Part shown: positions 2,756-18,586 of the stretch, in pieces
How the letters are laid out: each line of letters starts with the position of its first letter
Position numbering within the stretch: position 1 is the stretch's first letter
Assembly (NCBI RefSeq): GCF_027947535.2
Contig: NZ_JAAGKO020000001.1
Span: 1-64,000, forward strand
Direction of reading: 5' to 3'
DNA: 64,000 bases
Source of the DNA: Streptantibioticus silvisoli
GTDB taxonomy: Bacteria > Actinomycetota > Actinomycetes > Streptomycetales > Streptomycetaceae
Program-made: the position numbers and the translations under genes
Notes under the pieces: model-generated
The model's input: only the letters and a program-made list of their open reading frames with translations
Database searches by the model: none
What the model was told of the DNA's origin: nothing

Positions 2756-3988
2756 TCAGCTCGGTGACACCTCGTACGTCAGGATCGCGAGGGCGTCGGC
2801 CACGCGCTCGCGCAACTGCTGTTCGTCGCGTCCGGTGACCATGACCGCCGCGAAGAAGTTCTCCTTGGCCAGGGTGGAGACGCGGTACCCGTTGATGACG
2901 TAGGCGTCGAGGACGCCCTCGACCTCCCGCAGTTCGGCGGCGGTCGTTCGGCAGTGGACGACGCCGAGCGCCTCGGCCCCGACCGGGACGATCGCGATCG
3001 GGTCGGCGTTCCGCACGCCCTCGGCCGGCGCGGGTGCGGCGCCGAGGGCCATGTCGAGGGAGACCTCGATGGGATCGATCCCGGTACGGTGCTTGATCGC
3101 CGCGGTGTACAGGCCGCCGCCGGGCCGGGGGTTGATCTCGATCAGCCCCACCCGTCCCCCGTCCGCCACCCGTCCTTCGACGTGCAGCCACACCCCGTCG
3201 AGACCGAGCCGGGTCACCAGTACCTGGAGTTCTCCGACGAAGCGGGTGACGGCCTGGTCCGGCACTCTCGCCGGCGGGGACGTCCGCAGGCCGCGGTCAC
3301 GCAGCCGCACCGAGTCGTGGTCGGGCTTGTCGGCGACGAAGACCGTCGTGAACCTGCCGCCGAGGACGTACCCGTCGACGGAGAACTCCTCCCCCGTCAG
3401 GAACTCCTCGGCGATGAAGCGGAGCGGGACCGGTGCGTCCCGCAGCCCGGCGACGGCGTGGTCGAACTCCTCCCGGGAGTGGACGAGCCGCACGTCGCGC
3501 GAGGCGCCGCTCACCACGGCCGGCTTGAGCACCACCGGGTACTCCCGCGGGGGCGCCGACGCCAGTTCCGCGATCGAACCGTCGGTCCACCGCAGGGGGA
3601 AGACCCCGGCGGCGTCCGCGGCCCGGCGGACCGCGGCCTTGTCCGTCAGGGCGGCGAGGCCGGGACTGGGGTTCGCCAGGCCGAAGTGCCCCAGGAGCGC
3701 GTCGCGGCGCGGGATCAGCGACTCCACCATGTTGACGATCGCGGCTGGCCGGACCCCGGCCCGTTCCACGGCCGCCGCGATGTCCTCATCGGTGCCGTTC
3801 CAGTCGACGACGACGTGGCCGTCGCACGCCGCGGCGTTGGGATCGTCGGCCACCTCGGAGACCAGTACCACTCGCCAGCCCCGCTGCCGCAGCGCGGGAC
3901 TGAGCCGGGCGACGCCGCCGGCCAGCATTTCGGACAGCAGCAGGGTCGTGCGGACCTGCCCGTCCGCCACTCGGTACGGCTCGGTCAT
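2756..3988 (-). CDS. ATP-grasp ligase B
   Basis: This 410-residue protein is an ATP-grasp carboxylate-amine ligase of the type that activates a carboxylate as an acyl phosphate and joins it to an amine. Visible features are an N-terminal preATP-grasp Rossmann region, DKAAVRRAADAAGV, the ATP-lysine segment YPVVLKPAVVSGASRDV, FIAEEFLTGEEFSVDGYV and the metal-binding EINPRPGGGLYTAAI. The last segment resembles L-amino-acid ligases and related dipeptide or amide synthetases. The ATG at 3988 overlaps the TGA of the upstream ATP-grasp gene (ATGA), so the two are translationally coupled. A longer frame starting at 4351 lies inside that upstream gene and is not used. Substrates are unknown. The two ligases may act in sequence or as a heteromer. 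Confidence 0.85.
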   Translation of the reverse strand: MTEPYRVADGQVRTTLLLSEMLAGGVARLSPALRQRGWRVVLVSEVADDPNAAACDGHVVVDWNGTDEDIAAAVERAGVRPAAIVNMVESLIPRRDALLGHFGLANPSPGLAALTDKAAVRRAADAAGVFPLRWTDGSIAELASAPPREYPVVLKPAVVSGASRDVRLVHSREEFDHAVAGLRDAPVPLRFIAEEFLTGEEFSVDGYVLGGRFTTVFVADKPDHDSVRLRDRGLRTSPPARVPDQAVTRFVGELQVLVTRLGLDGVWLHVEGRVADGGRVGLIEINPRPGGGLYTAAIKHRTGIDPIEVSLDMALGAAPAPAEGVRNADPIAIVPVGAEALGVVHCRTTAAELREVEGVLDAYVINGYRVSTLAKENFFAAVMVTGRDEQQLRERVADALAILTYEVSPS

Positions 3989-5286
3989 CCTCCCACCACC
4001 GGAACGGTGACCACGGGGAGCCGCCGCGGGATCTCCTGCACCAGCGCCTCGAACTCCTCGAACGTATCGGCGCCGAAGAAGGCGAACACCACCCACTCCG
4101 AGGGATGCCGCATCTCCAGCACGTCCGACGGCGCGTGCCACACCTGCGCCTCGAACACCCCGGGGACCGCCATCACGTCCTCGACGCCGGGAATCCGCAC
4201 GATGCGGCCGGGCGCGTCCGGCCGCAGGTGCACCATGCCGATGTAGGGCGCCACCGGACGCGGGGCCTCGGTCCGGCCGTCGATGGCCAGATCGGCGATG
4301 ACCTTCCAGACGCTTCGCCCCAGAGCCTGACTGATGAGGCCGGGAATCCATCCGCCGCCGACCCGGGTCGCGATTTCGGAGAACACGATGCGCCCGTCCG
4401 GCTGCCGGAACACCTCAAGGTGAATCATCGTGTCGACGACCCCGAGGGCGCCCATGACACGCTCGACGAACGGTTCCATCCCGGCGTACAGCCCGGGGTG
4501 CGCCTCACGCGACAGCAGTTCGCCGCCGTCCTGGGGGCACTCACCGCGCTGGACCGCCAGGCGGGGCGCGAAGTAGCGGGAGATGAAGGAGAAGTGCGGC
4601 CCGTCCGCGCCCCAGTAGGCGTCGACGTGCAACTCCTCGCCGTCCACGAAGGACTCCACGATGAGCTGCCGGGAGAACAGCACCGGCTCGTAGGTGAAGG
4701 ACCGGCAGACCTCGCGGAACTCCGCCGCGTCCCGCACCCGGTGGGTGCTCATCGTCCCGAAACCGGCGGCCGGCTTCACCACGACGGGGAAGGTGAGGCG
4801 CTCCGCCAACGCCGCCACGGCCTCTGCGTCCGACGGATCGGGCAGGGAGAAGAAGTCCGGCGTCGCGACCCCGGCGGCGGCGAGCAGGTCCTTCATCAGC
4901 CGCTTGTCGCGCGCGGCGACCGAGGCGGTGACCGGGGTCCCAAGTCCCAGCAGCTCCGCGATGTACCCGGCGCCGAGTTGGGAGAACTCGGCATAACTCA
5001 CGACCTTGGCGACGTGCGGATCCTGCAACCGGATCGAGACCGCCACGGTCGCGAGCTCCTCCAGGGCGGAGAACGTACTCACCGTCTGGACCGAGAGCGC
5101 CCGGGAGAGCAGTTTTTCGTCGATACCGGCGTACGCGACGTCGAACTCGTCCAGGACGACGTGCACCCGGGTTCGTTCGAGCAGTTCCCTCGCGAGCTCC
5201 GGTTGCCACTTGAGCATCACGATCGATTGCTGGACGGCCGACGATCCGTGCGGATCACCGGTTCTGAGGCCGCCAGTTGAGTTCAC
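3985..5286 (-). CDS. ATP-grasp ligase A
   Basis: This 433-residue protein is a second ATP-grasp ligase. It shows ASVAARDKRLMKDLLAAAGV, the phosphate-binding lysine segment FPVVVKPAAGFGTMSTHRV, LIVESFVDGEELHVDAYW, a C-terminal metal site in VFSEIATRVGGGWIPGLIS, and a final domain containing IGMVHLRPDAPGRIVRIPG. This order is typical of the 400-430-residue PurK/L-amino-acid ligase group. The start is uncertain: GTG at 5286 gives the full frame with only a weak GGATGG upstream, and an internal ATG at 5217 lacks a clear ribosome site. It is distinct in sequence from ligase B, so recent duplication is unlikely. Ligation of two different building blocks is the simplest reading. Confidence 0.85.
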   Translation of the reverse strand: MNSTGGLRTGDPHGSSAVQQSIVMLKWQPELARELLERTRVHVVLDEFDVAYAGIDEKLLSRALSVQTVSTFSALEELATVAVSIRLQDPHVAKVVSYAEFSQLGAGYIAELLGLGTPVTASVAARDKRLMKDLLAAAGVATPDFFSLPDPSDAEAVAALAERLTFPVVVKPAAGFGTMSTHRVRDAAEFREVCRSFTYEPVLFSRQLIVESFVDGEELHVDAYWGADGPHFSFISRYFAPRLAVQRGECPQDGGELLSREAHPGLYAGMEPFVERVMGALGVVDTMIHLEVFRQPDGRIVFSEIATRVGGGWIPGLISQALGRSVWKVIADLAIDGRTEAPRPVAPYIGMVHLRPDAPGRIVRIPGVEDVMAVPGVFEAQVWHAPSDVLEMRHPSEWVVFAFFGADTFEEFEALVQEIPRRLPVVTVPVVGG

Positions 5287-5590
5287 GCATCCATCCGTTC
5301 AAGTGAAGAGGACAGTTTCCTGGTGCTGACGGGAGGCAGGTGATGACGGGAGTGCAGGTGATGACGGGAGTCGCGTGCGGGGGCGCGGCGGTGTGCGGTG
5401 CGAGGCGTGGGGTCCCGTCCGCGGCCGGACAGGCCGGATCGGCGGCGGTCACCGCGTCGGCTCGGGTGACCGCCTGTCCGGCCGCGATGCTGACGGCCAT
5501 GTCGACCGCGTCAACGTCCGTAGGACCGGCGGACGGTGACGCCGGGAACGGCACGCCGGCCCGCTCCCGAAGCTGCGACGGGTCGGCCAC
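5255..5590 (-). CDS. Ambiguous small ORF with TPVITC repeat, upstream of ATP-grasp genes
   Basis: The 459 bases between the cupin-like gene and ATP-grasp A hold two partial minus-strand frames with actinomycete-like third-position GC. One runs from GTG at 5685 (starting MSEDISDGAMGRVVEAVTE) until about 5600. The other runs from GTG at 5590 (starting MADPSQLRERAGVPFPA) to a stop at 5255. A frameshift could join them into one decayed gene. The second frame contains TPVITC twice in tandem followed by a third cysteine (LPSAPGNC). It overlaps the start of ATP-grasp A. It could be a pseudogene, a small peptide gene or not coding at all. No family is recognised. Confidence 0.25.
   Translation of the reverse strand: MADPSQLRERAGVPFPASPSAGPTDVDAVDMAVSIAAGQAVTRADAVTAADPACPAADGTPRLAPHTAAPPHATPVITCTPVITCLPSAPGNCPLHLNGWMRELNWRPQNR
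5337..5372. repeat. 18-bp perfect tandem duplication
   Basis: GCAGGTGATGACGGGAGT occurs twice back to back at 5337-5354 and 5355-5372. A partial third copy (TGCTGACGGGAG) lies just before. The unit length is a multiple of three, and on the minus strand it encodes TPVITC-TPVITC in the frame described at 5255-5590. Confidence 0.9.
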
Positions 5591-5745
5591 GCCAGTACGG
5601 CGACGTGTCCGACGCGCTCGCCGACCCGTTCGGTGACGGCTTCGACGACCCGTCCCATGGCGCCGTCGCTGATGTCCTCACTCACGGCTTCGCCGGGCCG
5701 TGACCGCGGTCGCGACCACGCCCGGCCGACAGAAGCAGGACCGCG

Positions 5746-6846
5746 CTAGACGTTCATGAACGCGTACGAGCTACCGCACTCGAATACCTCGCCCAGCCGC
5801 AGGTGGTCGCTTTCCCCGCGTAGGTAACGGGCCGTCGCGTCGAGCTTGGCGTCCCATTCCTCCGGATCGAGCGCCTTCGCCCGGCTCGTCAGTTCGGGGT
5901 TGTCACGGTGGAACTCCGCCATCGACGGCACCATGTAGGAATTCGCGATGCGAGTGGTCTCCGAGCACAGGAACAGCGTGATGGTCGGCCGGTCGGCGGC
6001 GGTCTTCCGGTCCACCTCCACGTCGTGGATCTGGTCGTTCGACATGAAGTAACTCTCTCCCTGCTTCAGGAGAACGCGTTCCTCGGCGGTGCGAAGACGG
6101 CTGGACACATACTCCTGGTGCGGCGGCCACACTCCGTCAACGCGCTCAAGAGCGACATCCTGATAACGGTCGGTGGCCCCGGCAGGCATCGCCTCGGAAG
6201 TCTCCTGGTAAATCGACTGCCGCATCTCTCCGACCGACACGTACGACACGAACGCGAAAGGGTGAGAATGCGCCGGTTCAACGATCGCACCGGGTTCGAG
6301 TCGCTTGGTCGACTCGAAGCCCTGCGCCTCGGGATTCGGCTGCCAGATGTGAATGCTGGCATGCCATTCCGCGACCGGGTAGCCCATGAACTCCTCGACC
6401 CCGGCGCCTGCGGGGGTCGTGCTGGCGATCGCCTTGTTCTCCGAGGCCAGCACCAGTGACTGGCCCGCCCAGCCGTAGATGCAGTGCGCCCGACCGGCGC
6501 GGGAACGCTCCGCGATGTCGTGTTCCGACGGGCGGCCGGACTTCAGGGACGTCCGCATCAGTTCGAGGAAGGCGGCGAGATTGTCCGCCCGGCCGAGAGT
6601 GCGGACGAAGGCGTTCATCCGCGAGATGCGGTCGGCACCCTCCGGCGTGTGCCGGATCTGTTCGAGCAACCCTTGCAGCTTCTCCAGCGTCTCGGTCGCG
6701 TCGGTCACACCCTGCTCGGATTCGGCGAGGATATTCGTGATCGATTCCACGGTCTCGTCATCGCAGTACCCCGATGACAACGCGTCACGCGAGCTGACCA
6801 GTGTCGGCCCCTCGGAGTTCTCAGAGTTGAGCCAGCCGGCAGTCAT
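5746..6846 (-). CDS. Cupin-like protein, possible metal-dependent oxygenase
   Basis: This protein of 366 residues has no family I can name firmly. The central part resembles a cupin: EPAHSHPFAFVSYVSVGEMRQ offers a paired histidine motif, and a later FMSNDQIHDVEV supplies a third candidate ligand about 80 residues on, as in cupin motifs 1 and 2. An N-terminal helical region of about 110 residues precedes it. The ATG at 6846 is chosen over the adjacent TTG at 6849 because AGGAAAGG lies just upstream. It is the first gene of a minus-strand set with two ATP-grasp ligases, so a small-molecule oxidation or isomerisation role is inferred. Base use is less GC-extreme than in neighbouring genes, which may indicate transfer. 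Confidence in a coding gene is high, in the function low. Confidence 0.7.
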   Translation of the reverse strand: MTAGWLNSENSEGPTLVSSRDALSSGYCDDETVESITNILAESEQGVTDATETLEKLQGLLEQIRHTPEGADRISRMNAFVRTLGRADNLAAFLELMRTSLKSGRPSEHDIAERSRAGRAHCIYGWAGQSLVLASENKAIASTTPAGAGVEEFMGYPVAEWHASIHIWQPNPEAQGFESTKRLEPGAIVEPAHSHPFAFVSYVSVGEMRQSIYQETSEAMPAGATDRYQDVALERVDGVWPPHQEYVSSRLRTAEERVLLKQGESYFMSNDQIHDVEVDRKTAADRPTITLFLCSETTRIANSYMVPSMAEFHRDNPELTSRAKALDPEEWDAKLDATARYLRGESDHLRLGEVFECGSSYAFMNV

Positions 6847-9011: not shown

Positions 9012-9617
9012 ATGCTCAATTCGCAGACACGTGTCCCGGCACCCGCCTCCGCCAAGGGTGTTCCGTGCTCTCCGGACATCATGGACCTGCCGTTCTACGA
9101 CCTCCCGGTCGGCCCGCAGGACCTCGTGGGCCACGAAACCGCCTGCTTCCGGCGTGCTCGCGGCATCCGGTCGGCACGTCGGGCGGACATCGCCGGATCG
9201 GTCTCCTCGCCCCTGGGCCCGGGCAGCGAATCGCAGCCGGTGCGTATCAACCTTTTCGACATTCAGGTATATCCCGCGAACTCCGCGCGTTTCCCGCTGG
9301 AATACGGAACTCACCCGACATCGGCCGACGGTCACCACCGCACGCCGGGTTTTGTCGGTGAGAATGCAGACGCCACGCACCCCGGCCGGCTCTTCCACCG
9401 TCAGATCGCGGTCAACGACACGTCGAACGACGTGGTGGCCGCCGCCGAAGCGGGTGTACGTCGTCCGGCGTCCGCCGTCATGACCGTTCCCTGCGACGAA
9501 CCGCGCCGCACGGCCGGCCGGACCGCACACATCAAGACGTTCCCCGGTGCGACCACCCCACGCACCCCGCGCACGACCTTCGAGGAAGCGCCCGACGGCG
9601 TCCTCAACCCCGCCTGA
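9012..9617 (+). CDS. Hypothetical protein, 201 residues
   Basis: An ATG at 9012, preceded by AGGACGG six bases upstream, opens a 201-codon frame with moderately high third-position GC. The product begins MLNSQTRVPAPASAKG, contains MDLPFYDLPVGPQDLVGHE and VRINLFDIQVYPANSARF, and ends in a threonine- and proline-rich tail. No family, signal peptide or membrane segment is recognised. The frame stays open upstream to 8652, but that extension looks non-coding. It precedes the aminoacyl-tRNA-synthetase-like genes by 121 bases and could belong with them. It may also be a decayed gene. Confidence 0.4.
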   Translation: MLNSQTRVPAPASAKGVPCSPDIMDLPFYDLPVGPQDLVGHETACFRRARGIRSARRADIAGSVSSPLGPGSESQPVRINLFDIQVYPANSARFPLEYGTHPTSADGHHRTPGFVGENADATHPGRLFHRQIAVNDTSNDVVAAAEAGVRRPASAVMTVPCDEPRRTAGRTAHIKTFPGATTPRTPRTTFEEAPDGVLNPA

Positions 9618-9738
9618 CCCGGCGCCACGAGACGCTGCGCACCCCCCAACTCCCACCCCCCACCTCACCCGTCCCACACCCTCCGGCTTCGCCAACTTCC
9701 CCAACTCCCCGGCCCACCCGTCGCAGAAAGGAGTCACC

Positions 9739-10188
9739 GTGCTGTACGCCAGTACCACCGCGAAGTCGGTGACAGCCGTGCTGCGGGGATCGGGGTTCGA
9801 GGAGCTGTTCCCGCTCAACGCGGTGCCGGCCGGCAACGCCCGCCGGGTGCGCTACGGCACCCACGTCACCGCGCGCCGGGACGGCAGCCGCTGGGCCGTG
9901 CGCTCGTACGGCACCGGGTTCGACCTGGTCGACCCGTCACGGCGCGACCTGTGCGGGCGCTGGTACTCCCTCGGTTGGGGCATGGTCGGCTCCCGCCAGG
10001 CCGACGAACTGCTGCTGGTCCAGGCGGACGGAATCGAGGACGCGGAGGCCGACCGGCTGGTCGGCGTGCTGGCCGGGGCGGTCGCCGGCCGCTCCAGCTG
10101 TTGGACCCACAGCGTGGAGCCCGGCCGGCGCGGCGCGACGCTGCGGATGGCCGCGGTGCTCGGCCCCGTACCCGAGGGACGGGACTGA
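9739..10188 (+). CDS. Hypothetical protein in the synthetase-like operon
   Basis: This 149-residue protein starts at GTG 9739, with AAAGGAG five bases upstream, and is followed after one base by the class II synthetase-like gene. It begins MLYASTTAKSVTAVLRGSG and contains RRVRYGTHVTARRDGSRW and GRWYSLGWGMVGSRQADELLLVQADG, which suggests a small alpha/beta domain. I do not recognise the family. Tight spacing argues that it works with the two synthetase-like proteins, for example as an accessory subunit. Confidence 0.75.
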   Translation: MLYASTTAKSVTAVLRGSGFEELFPLNAVPAGNARRVRYGTHVTARRDGSRWAVRSYGTGFDLVDPSRRDLCGRWYSLGWGMVGSRQADELLLVQADGIEDAEADRLVGVLAGAVAGRSSCWTHSVEPGRRGATLRMAAVLGPVPEGRD

Positions 10189-10189
10189 C

Positions 10190-11446
10190 ATGGCGACACA
10201 GCCGTACGTGCGGGCCCTGGATGCCGCCGAGTTCATCATGGGCCCGCCCACGGTCAAGGGCACCCCGATGTGGCGCGGTCGCGGGGTCGACGCGGTGCGG
10301 CTGCTGGTCGACGACTACCTGGCCCTGGTCCGCGAACGTTTTCCGGCCGAGGTCGTCGAGCACGGCTTCCTCGCCTCGCAGGCCGACAACCGGCGGGTCT
10401 TCGGCGAGTACGGGAACGTCTACGAACTCACCGACGTGCCGGGCGATCCCGACGCGCAGTTCCGCTCCGACAACATCGTCGCCTCCATCGCCCGGCTGGA
10501 GCGCGACCGCAGCGCGGGGCCGCTGGTGGCCATCGGGGCGATCATGCGGCACTTCCCCGGCAGCACGCCGCCGCTCTTCCGCGACCGGCTGGTGTGGCCG
10601 GTGGTCGAGCTCAACCAGCTGGTGGAGGCCGAACAGGCCGACAGCGTCCTGGACTTCCACCGCTCGGTCGTCGAACGGATGCTGTGGGACATCGGCATCC
10701 CCTCGATCACCGTGTGCACCGACGAGCTGGCCGGCTACGGCAAGGTCACCTACCTGGTGGTCACCGCGCTGCCGAACCGGCGGCCCACGGTGCTGGCCAC
10801 CTTGTACGTCCTGGCCGACGGCCTGCGCTCCGCGCTGGGCCCGCGGCGCGAGATCATCGACATCGGCTTCACCGGCAAGGTGCTGGCGACCGCGGCGATG
10901 CTGCACATGGACGCCCGCGGCCTGGCGCTGCCCAGCACCATCGCGCCGGTGCAACTCGGCGTGACCGCGGCGCCGCAGAGCGATCCGGCGACCTGTGAAC
11001 GGTGGCTGACCGGACTGCGGGCGGCCGGCCTGCGGTGCGAGGTGCGGCAGGCGGGCGGCAGCAGCCGGTCGCGGGCCCGGGCCGAGGAGTACTGGCACCG
11101 CACGGGCACCCCGCTGGTGATCGGTCTGGACCGTTCCCCCGACGCGGTGACGCTCTGCACCCGGTTCCCGCTGCACCGCGTACCGCTGGGCGAACTGCCC
11201 GCCCCCGAACGGGTCCGCGACCTGCTGGACCGGCACGACACCACCTTGCGCTCCCGCTCCCGGCGCCTGCTGGAGACCACCGTCGAGCGCAACGGCCACC
11301 TGCGCACCCTGTGCCCGCCCTGCGCCGCCCGGCCCGGTGTCGCGGTCTTCGGCCACGTCGTGCCGGCGAAGCCCGGCGACTGCCAGGAGTGCGGCGACGA
11401 GGCCGGGCAGCCGCTGTTCCTGAGCGAGGAAGGCAGGTTCTACTGA
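10190..11446 (+). CDS. ProRS-like class II aminoacyl-tRNA synthetase homologue
   Basis: This 418-residue protein resembles the catalytic core and anticodon-binding domain of prolyl/threonyl-type class II synthetases. The motif-3 region reads DIGFTGKVLATAAMLHMDA and runs into LALPSTIAPVQLGV, the usual junction to the C-terminal alpha/beta domain. That domain shows RAEEYWHRTGTPLVIGLD. The motif-3 arginine is lysine here, and the motif-2 region (FRDRLVWPVVELNQ) lacks the usual F-R-x-E pattern. The C terminus carries four cysteines (CPPCAARP and CQECGDEAG) that could bind zinc. A housekeeping ProRS is much longer and keeps these motifs. The gene ends in TGATG shared with the MetRS-like gene. It may activate an amino acid for a non-translational purpose. 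Confidence 0.7.
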   Translation: MATQPYVRALDAAEFIMGPPTVKGTPMWRGRGVDAVRLLVDDYLALVRERFPAEVVEHGFLASQADNRRVFGEYGNVYELTDVPGDPDAQFRSDNIVASIARLERDRSAGPLVAIGAIMRHFPGSTPPLFRDRLVWPVVELNQLVEAEQADSVLDFHRSVVERMLWDIGIPSITVCTDELAGYGKVTYLVVTALPNRRPTVLATLYVLADGLRSALGPRREIIDIGFTGKVLATAAMLHMDARGLALPSTIAPVQLGVTAAPQSDPATCERWLTGLRAAGLRCEVRQAGGSSRSRARAEEYWHRTGTPLVIGLDRSPDAVTLCTRFPLHRVPLGELPAPERVRDLLDRHDTTLRSRSRRLLETTVERNGHLRTLCPPCAARPGVAVFGHVVPAKPGDCQECGDEAGQPLFLSEEGRFY

Positions 11447-12996
11447 TGACCGCGCCGGTCTTCGTCTCCACCACCATCCCCTACGTCAACGCCCGTCCGC
11501 ACCTGGGTCACGCCTTCGAGTACGTGCAGACCGACGTCTACGCCCGGCACGCCCGCAGCCGGGGCGAGCAGGTCTTCCTGTCCAGCGGCACCGACGAGAA
11601 CAGCCTGAAGAACGTGCGGGCCGCCCGCGCCGGCGGCGAGCCGGTGCGCGACCTGGTCGACCGGCACGCCGCGGGCTTCACCGCGCTGCTGTCCGCCCTC
11701 GGTGTCGTCCCCGACCGCTTCGTGCGCACCAGCGCGGACGCCGACCACGCGGCGGGCGCCACGGCGGTGTGGGAGCGGATGGCGGCCCGCGGCGACATCT
11801 ACAGCCGGTTCTACGAGGGCAGTTACTGCGTCGGCTGCGAGCAGTTCCTCACCTCGGCCGACCTGGTCTCCGGCTGCTGCCCGGTCCACCGTGAGCAGCC
11901 CGTCGCGGTCCGGGAGCGCAACTACTTCTTCCGGCTCTCGCGCTACCAGGACGAGGTGATCGCCGCCCTCACCGACGGGCGCACGCGCGTCACCCCGGCG
12001 CCGCGGGCCAACGAGATGCTGGCGATGGCCCGGGCCGGCCTGGCGGACATCAGCGTCTCCCGGTCCGCCGAGCGGGCCGGCGGCTGGGGCATCCCGGTCC
12101 CGGGCGATCCCGGCCAGGTGATGTACGTGTGGGTCGACGCCCTCACCAGCTACGTCAACGCGCTCGGCGGTCCGCGGGGCGGCGAGCTCTACGACCGCTT
12201 CTGGCAGGGCGCGCGGCGCCGGGTGCACGTGCTGGGCAAGGACGTCGCGCGCTTCCACGCCGTGTACTGGCCGGCCATGCTGATGTCCGCCGGGCTGCCG
12301 CTGCCGACCGACCTGGTGGTGCACGGGCACATCACCTCGGCCGGCCAGAAGCTGAGCAAGACCTCCGGCACCGTCGTCGACCCCGTCGACCTGATGGACC
12401 GCTACGGCGCCGAGGCCCTGCGGTACCTGATGCTGGCGGACTTCTCCCCCTGGTCCGACACCGACTTCACCGAGCCGCGGCTGGTCGCCCGGTACAACGA
12501 CGACCTCGCCAACGGGCTGGGCAACCTCGTCGACCGGGTGACCGCCATGCTGCACCGGTACCGCGGCGGGACCGTACCGCCCCCGGGCACGCCCGGCGCA
12601 CCGGAGGCCGGCCTGCTCGCCGCCGCCACCACCGCGTGCCACGCCAGCGCCGAGGCGTTCGACCGCTTCGAGCACCGGGAGGCCGTCGCCCACGTGTGGG
12701 ACCTGGTGCGGCGGACCAACGCCTACCTCAGTGAACGCGAGCCGTGGCGGCTGGCCCGGTCGGCCGGTGAGGACGCGGCCGCGGCCGCCGCGCTCGACAC
12801 CGTGCTGCACCACGCCGCCGGCGCGCTGGCGACCGTGGCCCGGCTGATCGACCCGGTACTGCCGGCCACCGCCGGCCGGCTGCGGGAGGTCCTCGGCCTG
12901 CGGGACGCGGCGCACGGGCCGGACGGCGTCGTGGTCACCGGACTGCGCGTCGGCACGCCTCCCCGTCTCTTCCCCCGGTTGGAGTTGTCCTGGTGA
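11446..12996 (+). CDS. Methionyl-tRNA synthetase paralogue
   Basis: This 516-residue class I synthetase is full length for the short MetRS type. It has the HIGH-equivalent HLGH near residue 20, a zinc-knuckle region with YCVGCEQF and SGCCPVH, the methionine-pocket segment GQVMYVWVDALTSYVNALGG, the KMSKS-equivalent KLSKTSG and an anticodon-binding helix domain with RYNDDLANGLGNLVDRV and SEREPW. It joins methionine, or an analogue, to tRNA or another acceptor. Its place inside a biosynthetic operon, coupled to neighbours by TGATG and GTGA overlaps, argues against the housekeeping copy. Two roles fit: a resistant target protecting against the cluster's product, or an enzyme activating an amino acid for biosynthesis. 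The methionine specificity is by family, not proven. Confidence 0.9.
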   Translation: MTAPVFVSTTIPYVNARPHLGHAFEYVQTDVYARHARSRGEQVFLSSGTDENSLKNVRAARAGGEPVRDLVDRHAAGFTALLSALGVVPDRFVRTSADADHAAGATAVWERMAARGDIYSRFYEGSYCVGCEQFLTSADLVSGCCPVHREQPVAVRERNYFFRLSRYQDEVIAALTDGRTRVTPAPRANEMLAMARAGLADISVSRSAERAGGWGIPVPGDPGQVMYVWVDALTSYVNALGGPRGGELYDRFWQGARRRVHVLGKDVARFHAVYWPAMLMSAGLPLPTDLVVHGHITSAGQKLSKTSGTVVDPVDLMDRYGAEALRYLMLADFSPWSDTDFTEPRLVARYNDDLANGLGNLVDRVTAMLHRYRGGTVPPPGTPGAPEAGLLAAATTACHASAEAFDRFEHREAVAHVWDLVRRTNAYLSEREPWRLARSAGEDAAAAAALDTVLHHAAGALATVARLIDPVLPATAGRLREVLGLRDAAHGPDGVVVTGLRVGTPPRLFPRLELSW

Positions 12997-14033
12997 ACGG
13001 CACGATGGTGGTCAACCGGCTGGGACTGCGGGTGCCCGCGGCTCCCGCCCCGGGGCAGGCCCTGGGTCTGTGGACCCCCTCCTCTCCCGCGCCCGCGCTG
13101 TTCCCGCGGCGCTGGGGCCGGGCCATGGAGGCCCTGAGCACCGCGGGGTTCGAGGTGGTCACCGCCGCGTCCACGGTGGCGAACGCGGGTGTCGGCGCGG
13201 CCGATCCGCGTGAACTGGCCGCGGATCTGCACCGGTTGCTGCGCGACGACCGGGTCGGGGCGATCATGGGGACCACCGGGGGGCACACCTCTTCCACGGT
13301 CCTGCGGTACGTGGACTGGGACCTGGTCCGTGAGGCGGGCAAGCCGATCATCGGCTACAGCGACCTGACCAGCGTGCTGTGGGCGACGCTGTCGCGGGCC
13401 CGGCTGGTGTCCTTCCACGGTCCGATGGTCATCTCCGAGTGGGGCGAGTTCGGCGGCCCGTGGCCGTACACCGTCGGCAACCTGCGCGCGTGCCTCGATC
13501 CGCGCACCGCGCCGGTGGAGCTCGCACCGCCGCCGCAGTGGACGGACGAGTCGCTGTGGTGGGACAGCACGGACGACCGGCGCCGCACCGCGGTGCCGGG
13601 TACCTGGCGCTGCCTGCTGCCCGGCACCGCCGAGGGCTGGCTGCTGCCCGGCTGCGCCCCCACCGCGAGCCTGCTGTTCGGCACCCCGTACCTGCCGGAC
13701 GTCGAGGGCGCGATCGTCTGCCTGGAGTTCCTGGAGATGGGACCCGACCAGGTGTGGGCCCATCTGACGCAGTGGGCGGACAGCGGCCTGCTCGACCGGA
13801 TCGCCGGGCTGGTGATCGGCCGGCACTTCCGGCCGCGCACCGCGGCCGGGGGGTCCGGGGACTTCGACGAGGTCGTGCGCGCCGTGGTCGGGCGCAGGAA
13901 CCTGCCGGTGCTGGTGGACGTCGACTTCGGGCACACCGAGCCGAGGCTCACCCTGCCGGTCGGCGCCCGCGCCCGGCTCGATGCCACCGGCTGCGGCCTC
14001 ACCCTGCTGGAAAACTCCACCACCACGCCTTGA
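12993..14033 (+). CDS. S66 peptidase, MccF/LD-carboxypeptidase family
   Basis: This 346-residue serine peptidase shows the S66 triad: Ser123 in GYSDLT, Glu245 in CLEFLE and His314 in DFGHTEP. It also has the family's MGTTGGHTSSTVLRYVDWD segment. Two functions are known in this family: trimming LD bonds in murein peptides, and MccF-type immunity by cleaving the amide between an aminoacyl group and a nucleotide in microcin C-like Trojan-horse antibiotics. The lack of a signal peptide and the neighbouring MetRS paralogue favour the MccF-like reading. GTG at 12993 overlaps the MetRS stop. It should act in the cytoplasm. Confidence 0.85.
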   Translation: MNGTMVVNRLGLRVPAAPAPGQALGLWTPSSPAPALFPRRWGRAMEALSTAGFEVVTAASTVANAGVGAADPRELAADLHRLLRDDRVGAIMGTTGGHTSSTVLRYVDWDLVREAGKPIIGYSDLTSVLWATLSRARLVSFHGPMVISEWGEFGGPWPYTVGNLRACLDPRTAPVELAPPPQWTDESLWWDSTDDRRRTAVPGTWRCLLPGTAEGWLLPGCAPTASLLFGTPYLPDVEGAIVCLEFLEMGPDQVWAHLTQWADSGLLDRIAGLVIGRHFRPRTAAGGSGDFDEVVRAVVGRRNLPVLVDVDFGHTEPRLTLPVGARARLDATGCGLTLLENSTTTP

Positions 14034-14044
14034 AGGAGGACCGT

Positions 14045-15082
14045 ATGAGCGGCGCATTGTTCACCGATCAGGACGGAACCGTCGTCGTCGAGACCGACGC
14101 ACGGGTATGTGTGCGGTGCGTACTGCCCGAGACGTTTCCCGAAGCCGGGTTCGACGCCGACGGGGTGTGCAACTACTGCCGCAGCGAGGCCGAGCGGATC
14201 GAGGGCAGCCAGGAGGCGGTCGACTCCGTCCTGGCCGCCAGCCGCGCCAGGGGCGCGGACTACGACGTCGTCCTGCTCTACAGCGGCGGCAAGGACAGTT
14301 CACTGTCGCTGATCGACCTGGTCGCCAACCGCGGCCTGCGCGTGCTGGCCCTCACCCTCGACAACGGCTTCCTCGCCGAGGTCACCGCGGCCAACATGCG
14401 GGCCGTGCTCGACAGCGTCGGCGCCGACCACATCGTCCTGCGCCCCCAGCGCAAGCTGATGCACGGCGTCTACCGCAGCGCCCTGACCGGGGACTTCGGC
14501 CCGGAGACGGTGAAGTACTCCACGGCCGCGTGCGGTTCGTGCATCGGCATGGTCTTCGCGGCGGGCATGCGCACCGCCTCCTCCTACGGCGTCTCCCTGC
14601 TGGCCGGCGGCTGGACCCCCGGACAGATGACGACCTCGGCGTTCGTGCCGACCTCCTTTCTGCGCGAGGTGGTCGACCGCAACCTCGACCCGGTCCGGCT
14701 GACCGCACCGGAGCTCAAGGACGGTCTCGACACCTGGACCCACGACTCCGGTGAACTGCCCATCGGCCTGGTCAACCCGCTGTACGCCTCGGACTACAGC
14801 GAGGCCAAGACCTTGTCGGTGCTGGCCGAGCACGGCTGGCAGGCGCCGCGCGACACCGACTCCTGCTCCACCAACTGCCGCCTCAACGGCCTCCTGATCC
14901 TCGACCACCTGCGCAAGTACGGCTACCACCCCTACGTCTACGAGATGGCGCACCACGTCCGTCTCGGGGCGATGACCCGCGACGAGGCGCTGGCGAAGCT
15001 GCGCCACACCAAGGTGCCCACCGCCTCCGTGGGCCCGGTCGCCGTCGAACTGGGCATCCGCTCGCCGTTGCAGACCGTCTGA
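14045..15082 (+). CDS. PP-loop protein, N-acetyl sugar amidotransferase-like
   Basis: This 345-residue protein has the PP-loop pyrophosphatase motif SGGKDSS at residues 80-86 and, before it, a CVRC...CNYC four-cysteine cluster typical of the WbpG/PseA amidotransferase group. Further cysteines occur in CGSC and CSTNC. Such enzymes adenylate a carbonyl with ATP and replace oxygen with nitrogen or sulfur. WbpG works with a HisH/HisF-like ammonia source, and none is present here, so another nitrogen donor or a sulfur donor may be used. AAGGAGG precedes the ATG at 14045. In this operon it could build an amidine, guanidine or thioamide. That is inference. Confidence 0.8.
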   Translation: MSGALFTDQDGTVVVETDARVCVRCVLPETFPEAGFDADGVCNYCRSEAERIEGSQEAVDSVLAASRARGADYDVVLLYSGGKDSSLSLIDLVANRGLRVLALTLDNGFLAEVTAANMRAVLDSVGADHIVLRPQRKLMHGVYRSALTGDFGPETVKYSTAACGSCIGMVFAAGMRTASSYGVSLLAGGWTPGQMTTSAFVPTSFLREVVDRNLDPVRLTAPELKDGLDTWTHDSGELPIGLVNPLYASDYSEAKTLSVLAEHGWQAPRDTDSCSTNCRLNGLLILDHLRKYGYHPYVYEMAHHVRLGAMTRDEALAKLRHTKVPTASVGPVAVELGIRSPLQTV

Positions 15083-15162: not shown

Positions 15163-16038
15163 ATGAGCACGCCCACGCTGACCGACCTCGCCACCAAGGC
15201 CATCGACGACCTGTCGGTCGCCGAGATCAACGAGCTCGACTTCTCCCGGGTCGTCGCGCTGACCAACGAGCCGAACATGTGCTCCGGTGGCGGCGCGACC
15301 GTCCGCCGGGTGCTCCAGCTGGCCGGCCCGCTGCGCGGACGCCCGGTGCTGGAGGTCGGCAGCAACACCGGCTTCACCAGCATCGAGATGGCCAGCTGGC
15401 TGGACTCGCCCGTCACCGGCCTGGACGTCAACCCCGTCTCCAACGCCTTCGCCGAGGCCAAGGCCAAGGCTGCGGGTATCGACAACGTCAACTTCGTGCT
15501 CGGCGACGGCCAGGGCATGCCGTTCGAGGACGACTCGTTCGACCTGGTCTTCGCCAGCAACGTCACCTCGTTCATGACCGACCACCGCCGGGCGTGCGAC
15601 GAGTACTACCGGGTGCTCAGCCCCCGCGGCGTGCTCGCGGCCGTGCCGATCTACTACCGGAGCACGCCGCCGGAGTCGCTGCGCAAGGCCGTCGAGGCGG
15701 CCATCGGCGTGCCGCTGCCCATCACCAGCGAGCAGTACTGGATCGACATCTTCTCCCGTGAGGGCGTCTCCCTCATCGAGGCCGAGCCGTACGAGTACGT
15801 GCGCCAGACCCCCGAGCGCATCAACGCGTACGTGGAGACGGTCATGGACCAGTCGCACCTGGCCAGGCAGTCGGCGGAGAAGGTCGCGGCCCTGCGTTCG
15901 CGGCTGGCGCACTTCTACGACATCTTCGACGAGAACCTCTCGTACGCCGGCTACTCGATCCTGCTCTTCCGCTCCGGCCACCCGAACCCGGAGCCGATCC
16001 TGCACACCACCCGTCGCGTGCACGAGAACCGGGCGTGA
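15163..16038 (+). CDS. SAM-dependent methyltransferase
   Basis: This 291-residue protein has a class I methyltransferase fold. Motif I reads VLEVGSNTGFTSIEMASWL, followed by VTGLDVNPVS, FVLGDGQGMPFEDDSFDLVFASNV and the post-motif YYRVLSPRGVLAAVPIYY. The N-terminal 50 residues contain NMCSGGGATVRRVL, which probably closes the substrate pocket. It transfers a methyl group to a small molecule, but the acceptor atom cannot be read from sequence. A GAAGGGG lies before the ATG. The 80 bases upstream are unusually pyrimidine-rich. The stop overlaps the aminotransferase start. Confidence 0.88.
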   Translation: MSTPTLTDLATKAIDDLSVAEINELDFSRVVALTNEPNMCSGGGATVRRVLQLAGPLRGRPVLEVGSNTGFTSIEMASWLDSPVTGLDVNPVSNAFAEAKAKAAGIDNVNFVLGDGQGMPFEDDSFDLVFASNVTSFMTDHRRACDEYYRVLSPRGVLAAVPIYYRSTPPESLRKAVEAAIGVPLPITSEQYWIDIFSREGVSLIEAEPYEYVRQTPERINAYVETVMDQSHLARQSAEKVAALRSRLAHFYDIFDENLSYAGYSILLFRSGHPNPEPILHTTRRVHENRA

Positions 16039-17360
16039 ACGAGCCGCGCCGCGAGGGCGGCCCGCTGCGGGAGCTGCTGGCCGACTCGATCCGTCCCAAC
16101 CACCTGCCGGACGTCGCCTGGCTCCAGGAATACCTGGCGGGCGGCGCTCCGGCGGGCGAGCCGATGATGCTGAGCCTCGGTGAGACCTGGGACCACACGC
16201 CCGCGGCCCTGCTTCAGGCGTTGCGCGAGGTCCCGTCGACCTCGCACGGCTACCAGATCTCCATGTACGGGCTGCCGCTGCTGCGCAACGTGCTCAAGGA
16301 GTACGTGGCCGACACCCAGCGCCTGCCGCGCACCGCGGAGTGGGAGGTGGCGGTCGGCTGGACCGGCACCCGCAGCGCCATGCGCGACTTCGCCGTCCTG
16401 GTGGCGCGGGAGCGGGCCGCGCAGGGGCTCGGGCCGGGCACCGTGCTGGCCGTCGCGCCGGCCTGGGACTACGCCGGGTTCGCCGAGCCGCTGGGCTTCA
16501 CCACCGCCTATGTGCCCTTCGACCCGGCGGCGGCCGACGGCCCGTCACCGGCCGACGTGCGCACGGCGGTCGCCGGACTGCCGGCCGGTGAGCTGTCGGT
16601 GGTCGTGGTCAACGCCCAGCACAACCCCACCGGCGCCAACTGGTCGCCGCAGCAGGTGGAAGCCCTGCTGGACGCCGCCGCCGAGCACGGCGCCGCCGTG
16701 CTGGTCGACGACGCCTACTACGGCGTCTGCCCGCCCGGGGAAACGGTCACCTCGGCGCTGGAGATCCTGCTGTCGCGGCCGCACGACTCCCGCGGCGGCC
16801 GGTGGCTGGGGGTCAGGTCGCTGGGCAAGCAGTTCCACTGCAACGGCTGGGCGCTGGGCGCGCTGATCGCGGCACCCGACACCCTCGACACCCTGGTCAA
16901 CGACCTGCGCCCGCAGCACACCTTCAACTACGCCATCCACCTCCAGTGGGCCATGGCGCAGTGGCTGGCCGACCGGCCGGCCGTCGAGGAGTACCTGCGC
17001 GGCGAACAGGCCGCCACGGCGGAAAAGCGTGCCGCGGTACTCGCCCGGCTGGCCCCCGACAGCGCACGCCGCGCCATCGCCGGCCCGGCGGCACCGTACG
17101 TGCTCTTCCCCGTCCCGGACGGCATGGAACTCGGCGACCACCTGCGCCGCTGCGTGCTGGAGTGCGGCGTACTGCTGTCCGACGCCTGGCCGCTGGCACG
17201 CACCGGTTCCACCGAACGCACCGGGTACGCACGGATGTACCTGGGCCCGGACCTGGACGTGCTGATGGCGGCCGTCGACCGCCTGGAGGCGGCCAAGCTG
17301 TGGCCGGGGCCGGCGGACACCGCCGGCCGGGCGCCGGAACGGGAGCCCACCGCACCGTGA
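16035..17360 (+). CDS. PLP-dependent aminotransferase, class I/II
   Basis: This 441-residue fold-type I enzyme has the cofactor-binding NAQHNPTGANWS, the aspartate segment VLVDDAYYGVCPPG and the Schiff-base lysine in RSLGKQFHCNGWALGALIA. It starts at GTG 16035, overlapping the methyltransferase stop (GTGA). Typical reactions are transamination of an alpha-amino or alpha-keto acid. A minority of this fold are oxidases or hydroxylases of arginine, which is worth noting because an amidinotransferase is encoded nearby, but I see no decisive signature for that group. The last 20 residues are alanine- and proline-rich and probably disordered. Confidence 0.85.
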   Translation: MNEPRREGGPLRELLADSIRPNHLPDVAWLQEYLAGGAPAGEPMMLSLGETWDHTPAALLQALREVPSTSHGYQISMYGLPLLRNVLKEYVADTQRLPRTAEWEVAVGWTGTRSAMRDFAVLVARERAAQGLGPGTVLAVAPAWDYAGFAEPLGFTTAYVPFDPAAADGPSPADVRTAVAGLPAGELSVVVVNAQHNPTGANWSPQQVEALLDAAAEHGAAVLVDDAYYGVCPPGETVTSALEILLSRPHDSRGGRWLGVRSLGKQFHCNGWALGALIAAPDTLDTLVNDLRPQHTFNYAIHLQWAMAQWLADRPAVEEYLRGEQAATAEKRAAVLARLAPDSARRAIAGPAAPYVLFPVPDGMELGDHLRRCVLECGVLLSDAWPLARTGSTERTGYARMYLGPDLDVLMAAVDRLEAAKLWPGPADTAGRAPEREPTAP

Positions 17361-18586
17361 GTCCGCTCGTCCAGACGCTGCCGACCCCCTCGCCGCGGAC
17401 CCCGGTCCGCCGGCGCGGGGGCCTGTTCGGCGCCGCCATGGTGGTCGACGGCGTCGGCACCGGCATGTTCATGCCGTTCAGCGTGCTGTACTTCCTGCAC
17501 ACCACGTCGCTGGCGCTGCCGCAGGTGGGGCTGGCGCTGACCGCGGCCGGTCTGCTGGCGCTGCCGGCGACCGTGGTGGCCGGTCCGCTGATCGACCGCT
17601 TCGGTCCGCTGGCCGCGGTGGTGGCCGGGAACCTGCTGTGCGCCGGCGCGTTCACCGGCTACCTGTTCGTCCGCAGCCTGTGGCAGCTGGCGGTCGTGGT
17701 GCTCCTCGCCGCGGCCGGTCAGACGGTGTTCGGGACCGCCACGATCGCGCTGATCGGCAGCATCAGCACGCCGCAGGAACGGCCCGGCTGGTTCGCCCGG
17801 CAGTCCGCCGCACGCAACGCCGGGTACGGCGTCGGCGCGCTGGCCGGCGCCGCGGCGGTCGCGGCCGGCACCCACCCGGCCTACCTGCTGCTGGCCGCCG
17901 TCAACGCCGTCAGCTACCTGGGGGCGGCGGCGCTGACCCTGGTGTGGCGCGGCGGGGCCGGCCACGCGGCGCCGGTGCCGGTACGGGCGACGGACCAGGA
18001 GCCGGCGCCGCGCTACGGCACGGTGCTGCGCGACCGGCGCCTGCTGCTGCTGACCGCCGGCGGTTTCGGCCTGGTGCTGTGCATGAACGTCCTGCCGGTG
18101 CTGCTGACGGTCTACCTGACCGAGGTGCTGGGCCGGTGGGCGTTCCTCGGCGGGCTGGCGATCGCCGCCAACACCGTGCTCGTCGTCGTGACGCAGACCA
18201 GCGTGACCCGGCGGGCCGGCTGGTCCTCCCCGGTCCGCGTGGTCCGGGCGGCGGCCGCCGCGTGGGCGGTGGCCTTCGCGGCGCTGTGGTCGCTGACCGC
18301 GCTGCCGGGGTGGACGGTGATCGTGGCGCTGGCGGTGGCCGTCGCCGCGCTGACACTGGCCGAGATGCTCTATGGGCCGACCGCCAAGTCACTGGCCCTG
18401 GCCATCGCTCCGCCGCGGTCCCCGGGCCGCCACCTCGGGTTCTACCAGCTGTCGTGGAGCACGGGGACCGCCCTGGCCCCCGCGATCCTGACCCGGCTGC
18501 TCGCCCAGGGACACCAGTGGCCCTGGATCTGCCTGATCGCGGTGTGCGCGCTGGCCGCCACCGCACTGGGCCGGCTTCGTCCATGA
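17357..18586 (+). CDS. MFS transporter 1
   Basis: This 409-residue protein is predicted to have about 12 membrane helices, with FGAAMVVDGVGTGMFMPFSVLYF opening the first and the loop motif PLIDRFGPLAAVVAGN between helices 2 and 3 (motif-A-like). It belongs to the drug-efflux side of the major facilitator superfamily. GTG at 17357 overlaps the aminotransferase stop. Location in the operon suggests export of the product or an intermediate. Confidence 0.88.
   Translation: MSPLVQTLPTPSPRTPVRRRGGLFGAAMVVDGVGTGMFMPFSVLYFLHTTSLALPQVGLALTAAGLLALPATVVAGPLIDRFGPLAAVVAGNLLCAGAFTGYLFVRSLWQLAVVVLLAAAGQTVFGTATIALIGSISTPQERPGWFARQSAARNAGYGVGALAGAAAVAAGTHPAYLLLAAVNAVSYLGAAALTLVWRGGAGHAAPVPVRATDQEPAPRYGTVLRDRRLLLLTAGGFGLVLCMNVLPVLLTVYLTEVLGRWAFLGGLAIAANTVLVVVTQTSVTRRAGWSSPVRVVRAAAAAWAVAFAALWSLTALPGWTVIVALAVAVAALTLAEMLYGPTAKSLALAIAPPRSPGRHLGFYQLSWSTGTALAPAILTRLLAQGHQWPWICLIAVCALAATALGRLRP

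What the first reader, a model, noticed from the sequence alone, without database searches (positions are those of the whole stretch)
2756..6846. Cupin-like protein plus two dissimilar ATP-grasp ligases
Two coupled ATP-grasp ligases with different sequences follow a 366-residue protein carrying HSH and a later H that could form a cupin metal site. This could be a compact pathway that oxidises one small acid and joins two amide bonds. Base use of the cupin-like gene is milder in GC than its surroundings. I do not recognise a described locus.
Basis: partly seen in the sequence, partly recalled or inferred. Interest (0 to 1): 0.6.

Follow-up and report, generated by a model that had tools for sequence, protein, structure and literature searches.

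The report
Uncharacterised ATP-grasp/cupin peptide gene cluster
The three genes are the conserved assembly block of a rare 12-gene actinomycete cluster that probably builds a small modified peptide without a ribosome or a peptide megasynthase; the cluster also carries three proteins derived from tRNA-charging enzymes, and its product is unknown.

Summary
In detail: a 366-residue protein with a cupin-like HSH...H pattern, followed on the minus strand by two dissimilar ATP-grasp ligases (about 24% identical) whose genes overlap (ATGA). In three other genomes (two Catenulispora, one Streptomyces) the trio is collinear at 67-76% identity. It is only part of the unit: these loci also hold an AsnA-like class II enzyme (a truncated remnant in the window), a 176-aa unknown, a ProRS-like protein, an S66 peptidase, a PP-loop enzyme, a methyltransferase, a PLP enzyme and an MFS pump; three of four hold a non-housekeeping methionyl-tRNA synthetase. 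The cupin is a diverged member of an unnamed actinobacterial 3-His cupin family, neither CDO-type nor N-N-forming-type (the Glu those need is Phe). AlphaFold failed twice. Best reading: a peptide-like antimetabolite made without NRPS, with two ATP-grasp amide bonds, a methylated unusual amino acid and a cupin oxygenation; the MetRS is a resistant target copy or, like SbzA in SB-203208, an aminoacyl transferase. The cluster is real (about 0.95); the chemistry is inferred (about 0.35). No described cluster was found in the papers searched; MIBiG was not available.

The parts
5746..6846 (-). Cupin-like protein, 366 aa: N-terminal part about 1-140 (helical in a low-confidence model), 3-His cupin region about 150-300
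   Evidence: Motifs H193-S-H195 and H274 invariant; hhalign to a 3-His cupin family P 97% E 1.7e-11; Pfam Cupin_2 only sub-threshold, 16.8 against 27.2 bits
3985..5286 (-). AG1, ATP-grasp ligase of the L-amino-acid-ligase type
   Evidence: PF13535 55.5 bits, LAL_C2 27.7 against 29.4; PDB 4wd3 L-amino acid ligase E 1e-24 with E291/E304/R308 aligned
2756..3988 (-). AG2, second ATP-grasp ligase, starts in the ATGA overlap with AG1
   Evidence: PF13535 64.9 bits; 3vot BL00235 E 7.6e-6; canonical EINPRPGGG
9015..9599 (+). Truncated AsnA-like (class II aaRS fold) remnant; C-terminal half with motif 3 missing
   Evidence: 38-41% to about residues 3-197 of intact homologues; intact copy in the same genome at G000:C43:203347-204303
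9658..10188 (+). U176, unknown protein next to the ProRS-like gene in every locus seen (start uncertain)
   Evidence: 38-47% homologues in L022-L024, 30-48% in L039 and L051-L054; no Pfam, NCBIfam or PHROG hit
10190..11446 (+). ProRS-like protein, 418 aa, altered motif 2, C-terminal Cys4 element
   Evidence: Profile to PDB 1nj1 ProRS E 1.5e-10; alignment
11446..12996 (+). Non-housekeeping MetRS of a cluster-linked clade
12993..14033 (+). S66 (LD-carboxypeptidase / MccF-type fold) peptidase
   Evidence: PF02016 and PF17676 above cut-off
14045..15082 (+). PP-loop ATPase, WbuX/N-acetyl-sugar-amidotransferase-like
   Evidence: L022 homologue to TIGR03573 104 bits against cut-off 203; 74% identity to it
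15163..16038 (+). Class I SAM methyltransferase
   Evidence: PF08241 71.5 bits; 76-80% in relatives
16035..17360 (+). PLP aminotransferase-fold enzyme, nearest curated model GntC
   Evidence: PF00155 85.7 bits; GntC 84.5 bits against cut-off 415
17426..18586 (+). MFS exporter of the cluster (start uncertain)
   Evidence: 58% to the L022 MFS

Best explanation
The three genes are the assembly block of a rare, uncharacterised actinomycete biosynthetic gene cluster of about 12 genes. Shown by sequence: conserved gene content and order; the catalytic residues of both ATP-grasp ligases; a 3-His metal site in the cupin that lacks the Glu of canonical cupin motif 1; a cluster-linked, non-housekeeping MetRS. 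Inferred: the methyltransferase and PLP enzyme make a C-methylated non-protein amino acid; the cupin, as a metal-dependent oxygenase, oxidises it or a partner acid; the PP-loop and AsnA-like enzymes install amide or amidine nitrogen; AG1 and then AG2 form two amide bonds, giving a short peptide that the MFS pump exports. The S66 peptidase and the MetRS paralogue protect the producer, which would make methionyl-tRNA synthetase the target; alternatively the MetRS adds an aminoacyl group, as SbzA does in SB-203208.
For: Trio collinear in three genomes of two other genera, 67-76% identity. The same loci carry U176, ProRS-like, S66, PP-loop, MT, PLP enzyme and MFS, and an intact AsnA-like gene. Both ligases pass PF13535; AG1 aligns to L-amino acid ligase 4wd3 at E 1e-24 with both acidic ligands. 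AG1's nearest other homologue (45%, L014) also sits with AsnA-like and S66 genes. Cupin: motifs, hhalign to a 3-His family, invariant E-x2-H-x-H...H. MetRS: cluster-linked clade, support 0.956, separate from housekeeping copies, with TDEHG changed to TDEN and, in the window, KMSKS changed to KLSKT; found near the AsnA/S66/U176/ProRS-like core in the window, two Catenulispora and three further genomes.
Against: No substrate or product is known. Streptomyces sp. 8L has no cluster-type MetRS, so it is dispensable or replaced there. Accessory MetRS genes of a related group occur outside such clusters in about 24 of 200 family genomes, and two MetRS genes per genome are common, so copy number is no evidence of resistance. 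The window's AsnA-like gene is truncated, so the cluster may be partly inactive or rely on the contig-43 copy. ATP-grasp enzymes also make non-peptide amides. The cupin fold was not confirmed by structure.
Confidence: 0.45

Rival explanations
1. Hydrazine (N-N) pathway: the cupin and the MetRS together form an N-N bond as in Spb40/PyrN (s56-p1, triacsin, pyrazomycin), and the ATP-grasp ligases attach the hydrazine acid to an amino acid.
For: Cupin, MetRS and ATP-grasp genes in one cluster; s56-p1 is a dipeptide, and standalone cupin and MetRS-like proteins exist (PMC10445470, PMC8664883).
Against: N-N cupins have an invariant Glu at H-x-H-x3-E; here that residue is Phe199 in all four homologues. 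No Lys/Orn N-hydroxylase on any of the four cluster contigs. Cupin and MetRS are decoupled: the L024 genome has the cupin without a cluster-type MetRS, while G057, G293 and G104 have the MetRS near the core and no homologue of this cupin was found at their loci. A MetRS-like gene beside a Lys N-hydroxylase in Streptomyces 8L (L122, inferred N-N type) is very distant from the window MetRS.
Confidence: 0.06
2. Sulfonamide or sulfur-oxidation pathway: the cupin acts on cysteine or another thiol as SbzM does, and the ATP-grasp ligases attach the oxidised acid; the MetRS is an aminoacyl transferase like SbzA.
For: SB-203208 pairs a cupin dioxygenase with an aaRS-like transferase and a beta-methylating methyltransferase (PMC6331615). 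A review notes SbzM homologues beside ATP-grasp genes (PMC9113183). 3-His sites occur in thiol dioxygenases (established knowledge).
Against: No aldehyde dehydrogenase (SbzJ role), adenylation enzyme or carrier protein in the conserved block. No profile match to CDO_I.
Confidence: 0.17
3. The trio is an independent module only incidentally near the aaRS-like genes; the window's real cluster is the neighbouring NRPS/PKS cluster (18.6-44.6 kb).
For: The trio is on the opposite strand and separated by about 2 kb without clear genes; an NRPS/PKS cluster lies downstream.
Against: In three other genomes the trio directly follows the MFS gene of the aaRS-like operon, whereas homologues of the amidinotransferase-like and radical SAM genes of the NRPS side were not found there.
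Confidence: 0.05

Closest known systems
ATP-grasp L-amino acid ligase peptide pathways (BacD/RizA/BL00235/DdaF type)
   Same: AG1 aligns to solved L-amino acid ligases (4wd3, 3vot) and has a LAL_C2-like C-terminus; such enzymes make short peptides without NRPS
   Different: Two divergent ligases with an orphan cupin and aaRS-derived proteins; the DdaF equivalog score (39 against 840 bits) is far below cut-off
Altemicidin / SB-203208 (sbz) cluster
   Same: Cupin plus aaRS-like protein plus an amino-acid-methylating methyltransferase
   Different: Uses adenylation enzymes, carrier proteins and GNATs for amide bonds, and an IleRS-type rather than a MetRS-type protein (PMC6331615)
Spb40/PyrN hydrazine synthetases
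   Same: Cupin and MetRS in one cluster
   Different: Glu of the N-N cupin absent; no Lys/Orn N-hydroxylase linked
Bacilysin (bac) pathway
   Same: Cupin plus ATP-grasp amino acid ligase (from general knowledge, not tested here)
   Different: BacB is a bicupin isomerase with a BacA partner; here there is one cupin domain and no BacA-like gene among the block's annotated genes
Asparagine synthetase A / AsnRS paralogues
   Same: AsnA-like gene of the cluster (L022 copy) matches PRK06462-type asparagine synthetase A (226 bits)
   Different: Below that model's cut-off (322), and truncated in the window

Membership tests
Cupin superfamily | Motif 1 His-x-His and motif 2 His with conserved Gly spacing | tested here: met
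   H193, H195, G206, G263, H274 invariant in four homologues
Cupin superfamily | Profile similarity to cupins | tested here: met
   hhalign P 97%, E 1.7e-11 over 156 columns to a 3-His cupin-like family; Pfam Cupin_2 alone is sub-threshold for both
Cupin superfamily | Beta-barrel fold | tested here: inconclusive
   AlphaFold pLDDT 34.8 and 33.1
Cysteine dioxygenase (CDO_I) | Profile similarity to the PF05995 family | tested here: not met
   hhalign against a CDO alignment P 0.15%
N-N forming hydrazine synthetase (Spb40/PyrN) | Invariant Glu in H-x-H-x3-E of the cupin | tested here: not met
   Phe199 at that position in all four (requirement from PMC8664883)
N-N forming hydrazine synthetase (Spb40/PyrN) | Linked Lys/Orn N-hydroxylase | tested here: not met
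   No PF13434 match on contigs G000:C1, G299:C301, G300:C290 or G298:C317; short draft contigs limit this for the relatives
ATP-grasp ligases | ATP-grasp domain over the curated cut-off | tested here: met
   PF13535 55.5 and 64.9 against 27 bits
ATP-grasp ligases | Acidic metal ligands of the active site | tested here: met
   AG1 HLEVF...SEIATRVGGG aligned to 4wd3; AG2 HVEG...IEINPRPGGG
L-amino acid ligase (LAL) subfamily | LAL_C2 domain over cut-off | tested here: not met
   27.7 against 29.4 bits for AG1, just below; a LAL-like function remains possible
L-amino acid ligase (LAL) subfamily | Dipeptide synthesis in vitro | not testable with these tools
   Needs purified enzyme
SB-203208 type (SbzM cupin) | Homology to SbzM | not testable with these tools
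SB-203208 type (SbzM cupin) | Aldehyde dehydrogenase, adenylation and carrier genes in the cluster | tested here: not met
   None among the annotated block genes
Housekeeping MetRS | Groups with housekeeping MetRS and keeps TDEHG/KMSKS | tested here: not met
   Separate clade, TDEN and KLSKT

The most novel reading that the evidence does not exclude
The cluster is one branch of an undescribed family of natural-product pathways whose shared core is a set of repurposed aminoacyl-tRNA-synthetase folds (AsnA-like, ProRS-like plus U176, usually a MetRS) with an S66 immunity peptidase. In this branch an orphan 3-His cupin and two ATP-grasp ligases add a new oxidation and a peptide chain, giving a compound aimed at methionyl-tRNA synthetase.
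Probability: 0.3. Interest if true: 0.75.

Novelty: new variant of a known kind. Interest (0 to 1): 0.5.

Why it matters
If the reading holds, it is a route, flagged by a possible resistance gene, to a natural product that may act on methionyl-tRNA synthetase, made without NRPS by individually assayable enzymes that include an unassigned cupin and aaRS-derived proteins. The recurring AsnA-like/S66/U176/ProRS-like core in other loci gives a handle for mining the whole family.

Tried and rejected
Hydrazine synthetase reading: disfavoured by the missing Glu and missing N-hydroxylase. CDO_I: rejected by profile comparison (the first attempt, used wrongly framed CDO sequences and was repeated). Copy-number argument for MetRS resistance: abandoned after a 200-genome sample showed that two MetRS genes are common (my note still carries the earlier, weaker argument). 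L003/L018 hit to the cupin: spurious, it lies outside the coding frame beside an HPPD-like gene. AlphaFold of the full protein and of the cupin part: pLDDT 35 and 33, not used, so no fold search was made. Viral contigs and plasmids: no cupin homologue. PDB searches with the cupin: nothing significant. Literature searches for a described cluster with these genes: none found; subscription journals and MIBiG were not searchable.
Full report
What is there. The finding's coordinates hold three minus-strand genes: a 366-aa cupin-like protein (6846-5746), AG1 (5286-3985) and AG2 (3988-2756). AG2 starts inside AG1's stop codon (ATGA). Both ligases pass Pfam's ATP-grasp_4 cut-off and share only 24-25% identity. 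AG1 is of the L-amino-acid-ligase type: PDB 4wd3 at E 1e-24, with E291, E304 and R308 aligned, and a C-terminus just under the LAL_C2 cut-off. AG2 has the standard EINPRPGGG and a weaker match to BL00235.

Is it a unit? A scan of 84,980 species genomes found three further homologues of the cupin: Catenulispora pinisilvae (L022), C. pinistramenti (L023) and Streptomyces sp. 8L (L024), at 71-74% identity. Because that scan uses short peptide patterns of one sequence, it finds close relatives only. Samples of 298 family genomes and 394 class genomes added none of comparable similarity. In all three relatives the cupin, AG1 and AG2 are adjacent in the same order.

The real extent. In the relatives the order is AsnA-like, U176, ProRS-like, MetRS (absent near the Streptomyces copy), S66 peptidase, PP-loop enzyme, methyltransferase, PLP enzyme, MFS, cupin, AG1, AG2, and in Catenulispora also a tRNA_edit-domain protein. 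The window has the same genes, at 52-80% identity for most of them (lower for U176), with the trio on the other side and inverted. Its AsnA-like gene is cut to a remnant, 9015-9599. The same genome carries a second cluster on contig 43 with an intact AsnA-like gene, S66, U176, ProRS-like and MFS; no cupin or ligase homologue was found in the 20 kb read there.

A wider core. AsnA-like, S66, U176 and ProRS-like genes recur together in four more family genomes (L051-L054), and AsnA-like, S66 and an AG1 homologue in L014. A MetRS of the window's clade lies beside the core in three of these genomes. That clade (window, two Catenulispora, G057, G293, G104) is separate from housekeeping MetRS with support 0.956, and its TDEHG motif reads TDEN or SDEN. 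A related group of accessory MetRS genes (HLGF instead of HLGH in the six examined) is found in about 24 of 200 genomes; in the seven loci examined none of the other cluster genes was nearby. The case for a role in the pathway therefore rests on linkage and clade, not on copy number. Whether the MetRS protects the producer or transfers an aminoacyl group cannot be told here. SB-203208 is a precedent for the second: its SbzA was located as a presumed resistance IleRS and proved to transfer isoleucine (PMC6331615).

The cupin. His193-x-His195 and His274 fit both cupin motifs; the Glu position of motif 1 is Phe199 in all four homologues. An intermediate (L017) led to a family found in 34 of 298 genomes. 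Profile-profile comparison with 27 of its members gives P 97%, E 1.7e-11 over 156 columns, and an E-x2-H-x-H...H pattern is invariant in a nine-sequence alignment. No NCBIfam model covers the members tested, and Pfam gives only sub-threshold Cupin_2. It does not match CDO_I. Two AlphaFold runs with four sequences failed, so the fold rests on motifs and profiles.

Mechanism. Shown: gene content, order, active-site residues. Inferred from family knowledge: the methyltransferase and PLP enzyme make a C-methylated amino acid; the PLP enzyme's nearest model is GntC, far below its cut-off, so the substrate is open. The PP-loop and AsnA-like enzymes would activate a carboxylate or amide for nitrogen transfer. 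The cupin would oxidise a building block. AG1 and AG2 would form two amide bonds, and the S66 peptidase would hydrolyse the product inside the producer.

The hydrazine reading. Cupin plus MetRS plus ATP-grasp suggests Spb40/PyrN chemistry. It is disfavoured by the absence of the cupin's conserved Glu (PMC8664883), by the lack of a linked Lys/Orn N-hydroxylase and by the decoupled occurrence of cupin and MetRS.

Novelty. I found no described cluster with this gene set in the open-access library. MIBiG and subscription papers were not available, so 'undescribed' is provisional. The individual enzyme kinds are known; the combination and the core family look new.

Noticed in passing
L051-L054, L039, L014: A recurring core of AsnA-like, S66, U176 and ProRS-like genes (in L014 an AlaRS-like gene and no ProRS-like or U176 homologue), with varied tailoring genes (PhyH, B12-radical SAM, methyltransferases) and often a cluster-type MetRS nearby.
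   Followed up: partly
window:10190-11446: ProRS-like protein whose motif 2 appears to lack the usual Glu and which ends in a Cys4 element; probably not an ordinary ProRS.
   Followed up: partly
L115-L121: Accessory MetRS with HLGF in place of HLGH and TDDN/TDEN in place of TDEH (six sequences examined); relatives in about 24 of 200 family genomes.
   Followed up: partly
L055-L084: Unnamed 3-His cupin-like family in 34 of 298 family genomes; members tested have no curated model above threshold.
   Followed up: partly
L039:12370-12924: Guanylate-kinase-like protein inside the second cluster of the same genome, possibly a resistance gene.
   Followed up: no
L018:15148-16785: Fusion of a tRNA_edit domain and an AsnA-like domain, beside what looks like an ATP-grasp gene.
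   Followed up: no
window:18633-44578: Neighbouring cluster: amidinotransferase-like protein without Pfam hit, MFS, KedN5-like B12-radical SAM methyltransferase, three NRPS genes and a PKS gene.
   Followed up: no
window:51928-59999: Terpene synthase with P450 genes.
   Followed up: no
L122: Streptomyces sp. 8L: MetRS-like gene next to a Lys N-hydroxylase, probably an N-N bond pathway.
   Followed up: no
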